A stretch of 64,000 nucleotides of DNA, from assembly GCA_903813345.2 (NCBI GenBank), contig CAIIXF020000002.1, positions 19,296,455-19,360,454 of the forward strand, in the 5' to 3' direction. The position numbers were made by a program, and so were the translations under genes. Positions within the stretch are counted from its first letter, which is position 1. Every line of letters starts with the position of its first letter. Under the pieces are notes generated by a model that was given only the letters and a program-made list of their open reading frames with translations, was not told the origin of the DNA and did no database searches. Below are positions 8,030 to 53,535 of this stretch, in pieces. This DNA comes from Owenia fusiformis. Lineage: Eukaryota; Annelida; Polychaeta; Sabellida; Oweniidae.

Positions 8030-10271
8030 ATGAATATGGAGATCGTAATGTGCATCGCTTTGCTTTGCGCATGTGTTGATGCAAGGCATCATAGTACTAG
8101 GGCTCGGGCTGGTCTGCCCCGTGTGGGGCACAACATTGCTGGATTAGAGATGGACAGACCATTGATCATCGGACATCGGGGAAGTGCTGGGATGATGCCT
8201 GAACATTCATTAGAGGGGTAAGTACATGTTGGGCCAGTCTTGAAGTCGACCATCTTATTTTAATCAGAATTCTACATTATTTGGCGAAATTATACCAACC
8301 AACAGTTTGTCAATCAGTCAATGAAGATATTACGTTTCTTTGATTAAGTATTACATTCATGTGACACTGTAGGAAAACCTGTACACATCGCTCAAAGTTG
8401 TCAATGATTTGACTGTATTTCTCAGCAGTAATGGCTTGGATAACACACGGTAGTGTTTGAAGTTGTTCTAAAGTCATTTTTGTATCTTTGGCATATACCA
8501 ACAGTAAAAGGTCAGGGAGGGACATTTTGAACGACGTGTGCAGGTTTGCCTATAGCACGATATTTGCCACCGCCACATGTTGAAATATAGTAAGCTGGTA
8601 GAAAATTGAATGATGTACAAATGTGCCAAATACCAGGGACTCAATCCTAAAAAGACAAAGATATGAGTAAAATAGCGGCAGGGTTTCCATTTTTGACCAC
8701 CCTGTATTAAAAGTCATTCAATGATTTTGTTTTCTTGGTCAATAGGTACAAACTGGCAATAAAGCAAGGTACCGACGTTATAGAGTGTGATATGTGTCTA
8801 ACAAAAGATCTAAAGATCGTCTGCCTGCATGAAAGTTGGTTCAGCAGAGTCACAAATGTCAAGGATGATCCCGAGTTTCGGGACAAAATTGTAATATTTA
8901 AAGTATAACAGTTACAGTTCGCTGTGTTAGTCATTAAATTATTGTTGCATTACATGATAAAGGTTTTATGTACTGTACCTTTTCTGCTATAAGAGGGGAC
9001 CCTCGTGTAACAAGATTGATGGACTTCCGATGGGGGATTTTGAACGAATATTCACATCTACCTCCTTTACTTCGAATATGCTTTAACATCTTTGACAAAT
9101 ACTACTTCTTTCATTCTATCAATCTTTTTCAAAATAAACGCATTAAGCGCAAAACTTTCAATGCAGCAATACGTCCCGTTTCCTTCTACTATCGGTTCTT
9201 TGAATGCGATCATTATGGATTTCCGAACAAGTGTGACAGTTGCGGAGAGATGAACTTATACTATGAATTCTTCCAATGGACAATGAGACAACGAGTGTAT
9301 GTACATTGTCAGTTCAGACATCTTGTGACGTATGGGCCCCCTTCAATGTGGTAAGAGTAGGTACATATATGTGTATTTGAATGTTGCATATTCTCAACTT
9401 CAAGGTGTCCAGAGAGGTTGAAGGATCTCTTATAAACGACTGGTTCTCTGTGGATTTTACACTGAAAGAGCTCAAAAAACTGCGACTGATTCAACCCAAT
9501 TCTTTTCGTGATCAGACTCATAATCTCAAATATCCCATGGCTACCCTTACAGAGCTTATAGACTTGGTTAAAGCCGAAGATAGGACCGTTGCTATACATG
9601 CTGAAACCAAAAACCCGGAATGGGTTAATTCGTTGGATTTGGTAAAGAATGCAAACACAACATTTGAGGACATCGTTGTTGAGGTCTTGGAGGCACGTGG
9701 TTATGACAGTGAATATTCCCCGTTCTTTTTGCAATCATTCAGTGAAGAGAGTCTGAGAGCGTTGGCGCAGAGGACTACCGTTCCGAAGGTGATGTTGGTT
9801 TGGAAAGAGGGTGTTACGCAAGAAAAACTAATGGAACTGTCAGAGTTCTGCTACGGAATGGGACTTTGGAAGGATCTGATTATCACTGGATGGAATGATG
9901 CTTACGGTTATAAGAATTATGCTTGGAATAGAACTGATCTTGTTGAGAGAATACACAACCTTGGAATGAAAGTCCACATTTATACAATGAGGAACGAGGA
10001 CAGATATTTGCTCTGGGACTATGGGCAAGACCCGCGTAGAGAGTATGAAGCATTCCTACAATTGGGAGTAGATGGCTATTTCACAGATTTCCCTGCAACA
10101 TTGAAATCTCTGCTGGATGATGCGTATATTTCCAGTGCAATCCCCTGTGCTACACTTTGCCCTCCTAGCCTTTCTAGTCCCGGATCCTCTTCAGATAAGA
10201 ATAAAAAACAAAGTAAATCTATCTTGCGTTCGATTCGAGCCTTGCTATGTTCGGTATATTGTGACGAATAA
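8030..10271 (+). CDS. Secreted GlpQ-type glycerophosphodiester phosphodiesterase
   Basis: Three exons, 8030-8217, 8746-8890 and 9405-10271, join in frame (phase 2, then phase 0) to 399 residues. Residues 1-18 resemble a signal peptide (MEIVMCIALLCACVDA follows the first Met-Asn). The GDPD TIM-barrel signature is complete: HRG at 49-51, PE at 57-58, ECD at 76-78, LHE at 90-92, ETK at 178-180 and VDGYFTDFP near the C-terminus. Family knowledge: these enzymes hydrolyse glycerophosphodiesters to glycerol 3-phosphate and an alcohol with a divalent metal, and the HRG, PE and ECD residues bind metal and substrate. The length and the 'DWFSVDFTL' block match the GlpQ-like, bacterial-periplasmic-type branch rather than mammalian GDE membrane enzymes. 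A 45-residue polar, Cys-containing tail follows the barrel. An AATAAA overlaps the stop codon. The start could also be the Met at 8036. Intron 1 carries a mariner fossil. Confidence 0.93.
8345..8707 (-). mobile_element. mariner-type transposon 3' remnant in the GDPD intron
   Basis: The reverse strand ends with a mariner-type terminus (TACAGGGTGGTCAAAAATGG, complement near 8687-8706). It carries an open frame resembling the C-terminal tail of Tc1/mariner transposases (ITAEKYSQIIDNFERCVQVF, roughly 8370-8430), where a helical segment ends in a conserved Asn-Phe...Arg-Cys pattern. The other terminus and the DDE region are absent, so it is a truncated dead copy sitting antisense in intron 1 of the phosphodiesterase gene. 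Confidence 0.6.
8891..9404 (+). other. Intron 2 of the GDPD gene, with a long chance-like ORF
   Basis: The donor is GTAATA (weak) and the acceptor is CTTCAAG. The intron holds a 119-codon open segment, 8994-9350, bounded by an AG and a strong GTAAGA donor. Its frame (phase 2 on both sides) is incompatible with this phase 0 intron, and read in phase 0 it soon meets a stop. It is not part of the predicted enzyme. Confidence 0.7.
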
Positions 10272-41610: not shown

Positions 41611-42441
41611 GCTATATACTGTACTTTGTTTGTAGAAATGCCAGTCATGGCTGTTCGATGGGATTTGCTACGCTTTGGCGTTGCTGTTGTCTAGTTTTAC
41701 AGGCCATGATAACTTGGCTCGAATTTGTTCCGTCTAAATCAACTAACTAGTCATTTTTAACAACATTGTGGGATTACTGGGCATTTTTCAAAATTTGGGC
41801 CCTTACTGTATTTTCTTCTGCGCAAGCGCGAAAATTTTTGGGTCCCCTCCCTTGTTTTCGTGGCCACCCCTGATGTCTTGTTAATAACACACTGTCAGTG
41901 GTTGGGGGGGGGGTCGTTGGGTTCATGTGAATCCCCCAGCCCCTTGCCAAGATTCTTTCAAAATCATACAGTTTTCACCAATCTGAGCACTGTCAAATGA
42001 TTTTTGGCCAAAATTATCAATTGTGGTAGGTTTTGAAAATTGACCCCCTTGGTATGTTTTGGAAATTGACCCCCTGAGCTCAAACTTATTACGAGCCTGT
42101 AATATACCAGAAATATTGCTCAAATTTCTTCTGACAAATCACTAATAATGAAGTAAGAAATAAAATGCATTATGTAACTGATACAAGCAGTATTAAGCCA
42201 TATTAAAACAAATTTAAAACTTTTATTCTTTCACATTTCACAATTCTCGTGTGTTTTCTGATATCCATATGATATCTGAGATAAACATTCGTGATAAACA
42301 ACAGATTAGACAATGTAATACAATTGTTTCTATTAGAATTGGACCATTTCTGTTTATTACAGCTGGTTTTATAATCATTCTTTCAATTGTTTTCTCTTTC
42401 AAAATATACATATACAAAAAGTGCAAGATTCAGTATGTTAA
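41611..42441. other. Intergenic with a decayed MITE-like stretch
   Basis: 41775-41870 (TTCAAAATTTGGGCCC, GGCCACCCCTGA) resembles the right half of MITE family E. 41920-42100 contains two TTTTGGAAATTGACCCCC-type units and a TTGCCAAGA start that may be a further relic. No gene. Confidence 0.4.
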
Positions 42442-42930
42442 ACCTGCACATCGCTCCAAAACGCAATATGTTGACATATATTGTTTTTACATTTTCAAGC
42501 TCTAATATAAAGTTTATGTAAATAAAAATTGTTTTTTTCTGCGTAATATCAAAGAACAATCATTTAGTTAAAAAAATAAAAAGGCTAATCATGATTCGAA
42601 CCCGGGCCTCCCGCGTGCTCAGCGAGGATTCTACCCGCTACACCACCGTATTATTACGAAAGCAGGAAGTAATTAAACGCTACTTTTTTTGAATGCTATG
42701 ATTCGGAAGTGACGTCACGTTCTTCATTTAGAAACCTTTCCAAAATCATATCGCCGGCACCGATCGAAGCAAATTCAATGAAAAATCTTTGAAATGACAC
42801 ATTTATCGTAAGTATTTCTACACAAGATTTGCCCCATTTGTTCATCATTCTATAATCTTTCATTAAGCTCAAAATGATAAAGTTCACCCCCGAAACAACC
42901 CAAGATTGCGTTTCGGAGCGTAGTCCAGCT
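42442..42930. mobile_element. TTAA-flanked MITE family I, copy 1
   Basis: TTAA at 42438-42441 and 42931-42934 brackets 489 bases. The left end ACCTGCACATCGCTCCAAAA and the inverted right end AGCTGGACTACGCTCCGAAA are imperfect inverted repeats that both continue ACGCAAT. TTAA targets are characteristic of piggyBac-type transposition, so this is inferred to be a piggyBac-like MITE. It contains a tRNA-like segment (minus strand). The second copy is at 52818-53289. Confidence 0.75.
42584..42652 (-). pseudogene. tRNA-like segment (Gly/Ala-like), not a functional tRNA
   Basis: On the reverse strand GTAGCGGGTAGAATCCTCGC, a loop TGAGCAC and GCGGGAGGCCCGGGTTCGAA follow the order of a tRNA D arm, anticodon arm and T arm. 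A recognisable B box (GGTTCGAATCA, 42592-42602) and a downstream TTTTT suggest a former pol III promoter and terminator. The anticodon arm pairs, but position 33 is G, the 3' half of the T stem does not pair and the acceptor ends do not match. A tRNA-derived (SINE-like) relic inside the TTAA MITE is the best reading. Confidence 0.6.
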
Positions 42931-43069
42931 TTAAGTTGATAATTTGATAATGCAAATAAAGAAGCGGGCGCATTTTACATTTATTGCAAATGTTTCATCT
43001 GACAAATCAATGACTATGCTTTGATCAAATTGGGGCATGGAAGAACAAACTGATGCAAATGACATACAG

Positions 43070-52424: not shown

Positions 52425-53535
52425 ACAATGGGTAAGGAGCATCATAAAACACGAATCAAATGATGTTTTAGGTGAAATAAATATATGTGTTGCTTTATTT
52501 GAAAATAGGTGAATGGCTTAAATTCGTCCTATTTTAATGAATTTTGAAAACCTTTCGTCCTCAACGCTTCCACATACAGCAGAACACACACACATTTGCG
52601 AACCAAATCAACTACTTATTAGTAAACTAGAGTTTATAAGCAAAATAAGCATGCATGCTTAATGTAAAATTGGCCTCTTATATTTTGTTTAATGAACACC
52701 CGAAAAGTTGAAGGTAACAAAAAATGAGCATAAAGGTGGCTGTTGACAAAATCTATGTTTCAAACTTTATGATGTCACAATATGGGACATTTACTAGAAT
52801 TCACTCCTTGAAATTAAACCTGTACATCGCTCCAAAATTCAATATGTTAACATATATTGTTTTTACATTTTGAAGCTCTAATATGAAGTTTATGTAAATA
52901 AAAATTGTTTTTTCTGCGTAATATCAAAGAACAATCATTTAGTTAAAAAAAATAAAAAGTGATTGCAGGACTCATGCGTGCTGAGTGAGCATTCTACCGC
53001 AAGGCTACTGAGATATTATGATTGATGGGAGTAATTAAACACTACTTAAGTTGAATGCTATAATTCGGAAGTGATGTCACGTTCTTATTAAGAAACCTTC
53101 CCAAAATCATATTGTCGTCAAAAATCGAATCAATTCAACGAACAATCTTTGAAATGACACATTTATCGTAAGTATTTATACACAAGATTTGCCCCATTTG
53201 TTCATCATTCTATAATCTTTCATTAAGCTCAAAATGATAAAGTGCATCCCGAAACAACCCAAGATTGCGTTTTGGGGCAAACAGCAGCTTTAAACTTCCA
53301 TCTACCTTTATCAAGACTATCAGGAGTATAATAGTCAAATATTGTTTCAGCTATGAGCTTTTAAAGAAAAAAATTCTTCAAAATGTAACGTGTCAACAGC
53401 GGATATTTGCCAGATTTTTGGAAAAAGAACAGTTTTTAAAAAAAGAATGCGCGATAATTGTGAAAGGAGTGTATTTGCTTTAAAACTTCATTAAAGCAGC
53501 TTTAAAACGATATATAACTTTAATCAGAATATCTT
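52425..53535 (-). repeat. Dispersed repeat family F, copy 2 (split)
   Basis: Reverse complement of 24445-25095 in two pieces, 52425-52813 and 53290-53535, separated by the TTAA MITE. At the junction the uninterrupted copy reads through (GAAATAAAACTTC on the matching strand), so the MITE arrived after this repeat. Confidence 0.8.
52818..53289. mobile_element. TTAA-flanked MITE family I, copy 2
   Basis: TTAA at 52814-52817 and 53290-53293. The internal sequence matches copy 1 (TATATTGTTTTTACATTTTG, GAAATGACACATTTATCGTA, CCCATTTGTTCATCATTC). The tRNA-like portion (52965-53015, minus strand) is more decayed: the A-box side, GCGGTAGAATGCTCACT, and the AGCACGCATGAG arm remain, but the B box is lost. 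Confidence 0.8.

What the first reader, a model, noticed from the sequence alone, without database searches (positions are those of the whole stretch)
42442..42930. TTAA MITE that carries a tRNA-derived, pol III-type segment
Two copies (42442-42930, 52818-53289) have TTAA at both borders, imperfect inverted ends and, inside, a tRNA-like segment with a B box and a T-run. A DNA-transposon MITE spreading a SINE-like promoter would be an unusual hybrid; alternatively a SINE inserted early in the MITE's history.
Basis: partly seen in the sequence, partly recalled or inferred. Interest (0 to 1): 0.6.

Follow-up and report, generated by a model that had tools for sequence, protein, structure and literature searches.

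The report
TTAA MITE carrying a hypermutable tRNA-promoter module
A small, roughly 500-copy DNA-transposon family in this animal genome carries, in its ancestral body, a piece of a glycine tRNA gene with its promoter boxes and terminator, and exactly that piece mutates about ten times faster than the rest of the element, as if it were being transcribed.

Summary
Window copies 42438-42934 and 52814-53293 belong to a ~497-bp family with 510 left-end matches genome-wide. TTAA stands at 49/54 left and 51/54 right borders. Empty sites in two host repeats show a duplicated 4-bp slot. The tRNA-like segment is on the minus strand, comes from tRNA-Gly(GCC), and is present in every subfamily sampled. 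It is essentially absent elsewhere: 368 matches to its T-arm followed by the T-run, one without the run. Copy 2, however, has lost the B box. The family is therefore a TTAA MITE that mobilises a pol III-type promoter-terminator unit; it is not a SINE.

A new observation goes beyond the finding. The unit from about -16 of the tRNA-like part to its T-run is hypervariable: nearest-neighbour copies differ 15-24% in leader and acceptor arms against 1.6-2% elsewhere (37/37 pairs). Young copies carry private leader mutations. The non-CpG B-box arm is spared. A lineage that lost the B box, which includes window copy 2, has lost most of the hypervariability. The best reading is pol III-dependent, transcription-associated mutagenesis. 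Transcription is inferred, not shown. No autonomous partner was found.

The parts
42438..42934 (.). MITE copy 1 including both TTAA (element between them 42442-42930)
   Evidence: TTAA at both ends of copies with unrelated flanks
42442..42467 (+). left terminal inverted repeat
   Evidence: 510 genome matches at <=2 mismatches, 0 in control
42905..42930 (-). right terminal inverted repeat (25/30 to the left one, counted with TTAA)
42583..42669 (-). hypervariable pol III-type unit: leader, tRNA-Gly-like core, 3' acceptor strand
42635..42645 (-). A box TGGTGTAGCGG
   Evidence: sequence; motif scan
42592..42602 (-). B box GGTTCGAATCA (one mismatch; consensus GGTTCGAATCC)
42570..42582 (-). T-run TTTTTATTTTTTT directly after the tRNA-like part (terminator type)
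42704..42717 (-). CRE TGACGTCA with ETS-like CGGAAGTG upstream of the tRNA-like unit, conserved between subfamilies
52814..53293 (.). MITE copy 2 including both TTAA, nested in host repeat Y
52945..53012 (-). degenerate tRNA-like segment of copy 2; B box deleted; A-box position 52997-53007; CRE mutated to TGATGTCA at 53072-53079

Best explanation
The two copies belong to a non-autonomous TTAA-duplicating DNA-transposon (MITE) family whose founding element already contained a tRNA-Gly(GCC)-derived type-2 pol III unit, namely leader, A box, B box and T-run terminator, with a CRE/ETS-like site about 50 bp upstream. Cut-and-paste copying at TTAA spreads the unit; there is no sign of retroposition. 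The unit cannot be a working tRNA because the acceptor stem is gone. The B box arm and T-run persist in most copies, and the region between the predicted start (about -16) and the T-run mutates roughly 5-15 times faster than the rest. The most likely cause is that TFIIIC/pol III engages the unit in the germ line and transcription damages or exposes the DNA (transcription-associated mutagenesis, as described for tRNA gene flanks). Shown: the anatomy, the ancestral module, the hypervariability with its edges, and its drop after B-box loss. Inferred: transcription and its role as the cause. The MITE part alone I hold at about 0.9, the pol III mutagenesis part at about 0.5.
For: Family and TTAA; empty sites in two host repeats. 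Module in all subfamilies. Module not free-standing: 368 against 1. Parent: the genome's own tRNA-Gly-GCC shares the tracts GGTAGAATGCTCGC and GGCCCGGGTTCGA. Rfam tRNA model up to 30.9 bits. Hypervariability: hold-out trees; 37 nearest-neighbour pairs, leader 18.6% (hot part 24%), acceptor arms 16-18%, outside 1.6%; 37/37 pairs in the same direction; sample chosen only by left end, leader 23%, outside 2.0%, 14/14 pairs, non-CpG T arm 2/163. New mutations rather than exchange: 27 young copies have 13 leader haplotypes, 12 of them private and none found in other subfamilies, while fourteen other 15-nt windows have 1-6. Also seen in MITEs riding in host repeat X: leader 9.0%, 3' acceptor 8.4%, flanks 1.2-1.5%. 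B-box dependence: six copies of a B-deleted lineage, outside 4.0%, leader 8.5%, 3' acceptor 0%; none of 7394 matched B-intact groups is as low, mean leader 29%.
Against: There is no RNA, ChIP or other expression evidence. The B-deleted lineage is one event spread with host repeat Y, so its copies are not independent, and its leader is still about twice the outside rate. The deletion also removes the T-arm hairpin, so a DNA-structure cause is not separated from a transcription cause. A tandem array of real tRNA-Gly genes did not show the pattern clearly (eight units, homogenised). Loci were chosen by module similarity, so core rates including them are too low; one search corrects for this. CpG-rich 316-330, the A/T run near 90 and the right end are also somewhat variable.
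Confidence: 0.6

Rival explanations
1. Passive hitchhiker: a tRNA gene or tRNA-derived SINE fragment was captured or inserted into the founding MITE and has no activity; the hypervariability comes from sequence or hairpin instability, not transcription.
For: No expression data; the module cannot be a functional tRNA; the B-box deletion also destroys the T-arm hairpin.
Against: The hottest stretch is the leader (positions 218-232), outside the hairpin core; limits fit a start near -16 and the T-run; the same leader sequence type is quiet in the B-deleted lineage.
Confidence: 0.25
2. Gene conversion or recombination among copies shuffles module variants.
For: Hundreds of homologous copies exist.
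Against: Young copies carry private leader haplotypes, none found in other subfamilies; sharp edges inside otherwise homologous DNA; sister copies in host repeat X that share structural markers differ mainly in the module.
Confidence: 0.07
3. A tRNA-derived SINE with TTAA-like ends; the borders are not those of a DNA transposon.
For: Pol III boxes and T-run.
Against: Inverted repeats at both ends, TTAA 49/54 and 51/54, 4-bp slot in empty sites, module internal, no tail, no free module.
Confidence: 0.03
4. The module is selected within the element because TFIIIC/pol III binding opens chromatin and helps transposase reach the donor.
For: Non-CpG T arm spared inside the hypervariable unit; among the sampled copies no B-less subfamily was seen to expand by TTAA insertion, and the B-deleted lineage spread within host repeat Y.
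Against: TFIIIC protection or ascertainment could spare the box; mobility was not measured.
Confidence: 0.2

Closest known systems
piggyBac-type MITEs (TTAA target)
   Same: Short, non-coding, inverted ends, TTAA duplication
   Different: Ends begin ACC/AGC after TTAA; in seven piggyBac transposase loci checked here the flanks lack this end; carries a pol III unit
tRNA-derived SINEs
   Same: tRNA-derived A and B boxes, pol III-type start and T-run
   Different: Spread as a DNA element at TTAA, module internal, no tail, no free copies found
tRNA genes with transcription-associated mutagenesis (Thornlow et al. 2018, cited in PMC8113476)
   Same: Mutation excess around the pol III transcript limits while the box regions are spared
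   Different: Here in a pseudo-tRNA inside a transposon, where tRNA function cannot explain sparing of the box arm
Pol III genes with an upstream CRE, e.g. 7SL, vault RNA, EBER (from memory)
   Same: CRE upstream of A/B-box gene
   Different: Role of this CRE untested; similarity recalled, not tested

Membership tests
TTAA MITE (piggyBac-like) | TTAA target duplicated at unrelated sites | tested here: met
   49/54 left, 51/54 right; 4-bp slot in empty relatives of two host repeats, though their slots read AACA, TAAA or similar rather than TTAA
TTAA MITE (piggyBac-like) | Terminal inverted repeats | tested here: met
   25/30 in copy 1, perfect in several copies
TTAA MITE (piggyBac-like) | Autonomous relative with the same ends | tested here: inconclusive
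   PF13843 hits abound but seven flanks show no shared end; not all were checked, and other TTAA superfamilies (Kolobok, Sola3) were not tested
TTAA MITE (piggyBac-like) | piggyBac end motif CCY right after TTAA (motif from memory) | tested here: not met
   Ends read ACCTGC or AGCTGG; superfamily left open
tRNA-derived SINE | Element begins with tRNA-related region, copies with variable target duplications and LINE-like or simple tail | tested here: not met
   Internal module, TTAA borders, no tail
tRNA-derived SINE | Free-standing dispersed copies of the module | tested here: not met
   One T-arm match without T-run against 368 with it at <=2 mismatches; more diverged heads would be missed
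Type-2 pol III unit | A box, B box at tRNA spacing, T-run downstream | tested here: met
   46/60 left-end-anchored copies at <=1 mismatch per box
Type-2 pol III unit | Transcribed by pol III | not testable with these tools
   No RNA or ChIP data; only indirect mutation pattern
Functional tRNA gene | Cloverleaf with acceptor stem | tested here: not met
   Consensus acceptor strands do not pair (read by eye from the consensus); only 1 of 20 copies passes Rfam tRNA gathering

The most novel reading that the evidence does not exclude
A DNA transposon keeps a pol III promoter because TFIIIC/pol III engagement helps it move, and pays for it with a transcription-made mutation hot spot. Hundreds of copies, some with a deleted B box, then form a natural reporter array for pol III mutagenesis free of tRNA selection.
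Probability: 0.25. Interest if true: 0.8.

Novelty: new variant of a known kind. Interest (0 to 1): 0.62.

Why it matters
If right, a MITE has carried a pol III unit to hundreds of loci, and mutation caused by pol III transcription can be read in sequence not selected as tRNA. It would give start and end sites of the transcript from mutation alone, and a built-in control in copies without the B box. The open question of why box regions stay intact in tRNA genes despite high mutation, by selection or by protection, becomes testable here.

Tried and rejected
piggyBac partner: PF13843 search found 113 matches, but flanks of seven loci lack the ends. Real tRNA-Gly array as positive control: homogenised, not informative. 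Five X copies with a truncated unit have identical leaders but are too young to be informative. Acceptor-stem pairing: absent. Rfam hits to miRNA, snoRNA and tmRNA families are below gathering and treated as chance. Literature searches found no MITE with a tRNA-type promoter; the library lacks most subscription journals.

Full report
Observation. Copy 1 runs from TTAA 42438-42441 to TTAA 42931-42934, copy 2 from TTAA 52814-52817 to 53290-53293. The tRNA-like part is on the minus strand: reading that strand, CRE/ETS-like site, leader, A box, B box, T-run. Copy 1 is the only A+B+T arrangement at <=1 mismatch per box in the window.

Family. The window lies in a 498-Mb animal genome with 12 large contigs. 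Size and number fit Owenia fusiformis (505.8 Mb, 12 scaffolds; PMC9977687), which I did not verify. The left end has 510 matches at <=2 mismatches and none in the control. BLAST-chosen copies with different flanks have TTAA at 49/54 left and 51/54 right borders. Two host repeats that carry the MITE, X and Y, have relatives without it. In these the element plus one TTAA is missing and a single 4-bp slot remains, although the slot in the relatives reads AACA, TAAA or similar. This supports a 4-bp duplication but not TTAA at those particular empty sites.

Is the module ancestral, and does it live alone? Sixty copies were fetched by the left end only. All subfamilies carry the module; copies without it are individual deletions, truncations or insertions, and 46/60 keep both boxes and the T-run. 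The T-arm of the module followed by the T-run occurs 368 times at <=2 mismatches; followed by no T-run, once. A more diverged SINE head would be missed by this test. The genome's own tRNA-Gly-GCC (21 genes) is the nearest parent found, sharing GGTAGAATGCTCGC and GGCCCGGGTTCGA. The anticodon loop and acceptor strands have changed, and the acceptor stem no longer pairs, so it is a promoter relic and not a tRNA. The Rfam tRNA model gives 20-31 bits for the better copies.

New observation: a local mutation hot spot. Along the element, diversity is low except for positions 146-232, from the 3' acceptor strand just inside the T-run to the leader about 16 nt before the tRNA-like part. With trees built without the tested block, the module has 4.3 and the leader 6.4 changes per site, against 1.1-2.0 in the other long blocks; the CpG-rich 316-330 and the right end (471-494) are also raised, at 3.7 and 4.3. 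Thirty-seven nearest-neighbour pairs differ by 1.6% outside, 18.6% in the leader (24% in its hottest ten sites), 16-18% in the acceptor arms, 4-8% in the core and 1.7% at the CRE; the module exceeds the outside in 37/37 pairs. Because part of that set was chosen by module similarity, I repeated it with left-end-anchored copies only: leader 23%, outside 2.0%, 14/14 pairs, T arm without CpG sites 2/163. Among 27 young copies the 15-nt leader has 13 haplotypes, 12 private and none found in other subfamilies; private leader mutations are 6 times the outside rate (p about 1e-5). This speaks for new mutations, not exchange. MITEs riding in host repeat X show the same pattern: leader 9.0% and 3' acceptor 8.4% against 1.2-1.5%.

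Natural control. Six copies, including window copy 2, descend from one that lost the B box. They differ by 4.0% outside, 8.5% in the leader and 0% in the 3' acceptor strand. B-intact groups of matched outside divergence average 29% and 36%; none of 7394 is as low in the leader. The lineage is a single event, so this is one comparison, not six.

Mechanism. The limits of the hot spot match a pol III transcript, the B-box arm is spared, and loss of the B box quiets it. Transcription-associated mutagenesis is reported for tRNA genes, with elevated rates in their immediate flanks (Thornlow et al. 2018 as cited in PMC8113476). I infer germ-line pol III engagement of the unit. Whether the B box is spared by selection through better transposition or by TFIIIC protection cannot be told here. 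A DNA-hairpin cause is not excluded because the deletion also removes the T-arm hairpin.

Filing. It is a TTAA MITE by duplication and ends; the superfamily is open because no transposase with these ends was found and the end motif is not the usual piggyBac one. It is not a SINE and not a tRNA gene. A MITE with an ancestral pol III unit and a transcript-shaped mutation hot spot was not found in the literature held.

Noticed in passing
window 52650-53450; L009-L014, L016: Copy 2 lies in a repeat (Y) with at least 40 relatives lacking the MITE at 88-90% identity.
   Followed up: partly
L072, L075, L084, L094, L095, L097, L099, L105, L153-L178: A second repeat (X, ending ...AGTACATTCC) carries the MITE as passenger in at least 29 copies identical over 96 bp; how X itself moves is unknown.
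   Followed up: partly
element positions 233-240 and the bases after the T-run: TTTAATTA before the leader and TTTAACTA after the T-run match 7/8, possibly an old target duplication around an inserted tRNA unit; could be chance in A/T-rich DNA.
   Followed up: no
L114: A mariner-like sequence (CAGGGTGGGCCAAAAAAA) sits inside one MITE copy after TA.
   Followed up: no
window 9381-10271 (+): Open frame with a GDPD (glycerophosphodiester phosphodiesterase) domain match, E 8.5e-16.
   Followed up: no
genome C2:29323044-29327432: Tandem array of tRNA-Gly-GCC genes with a unit of about 150 bp.
   Followed up: partly
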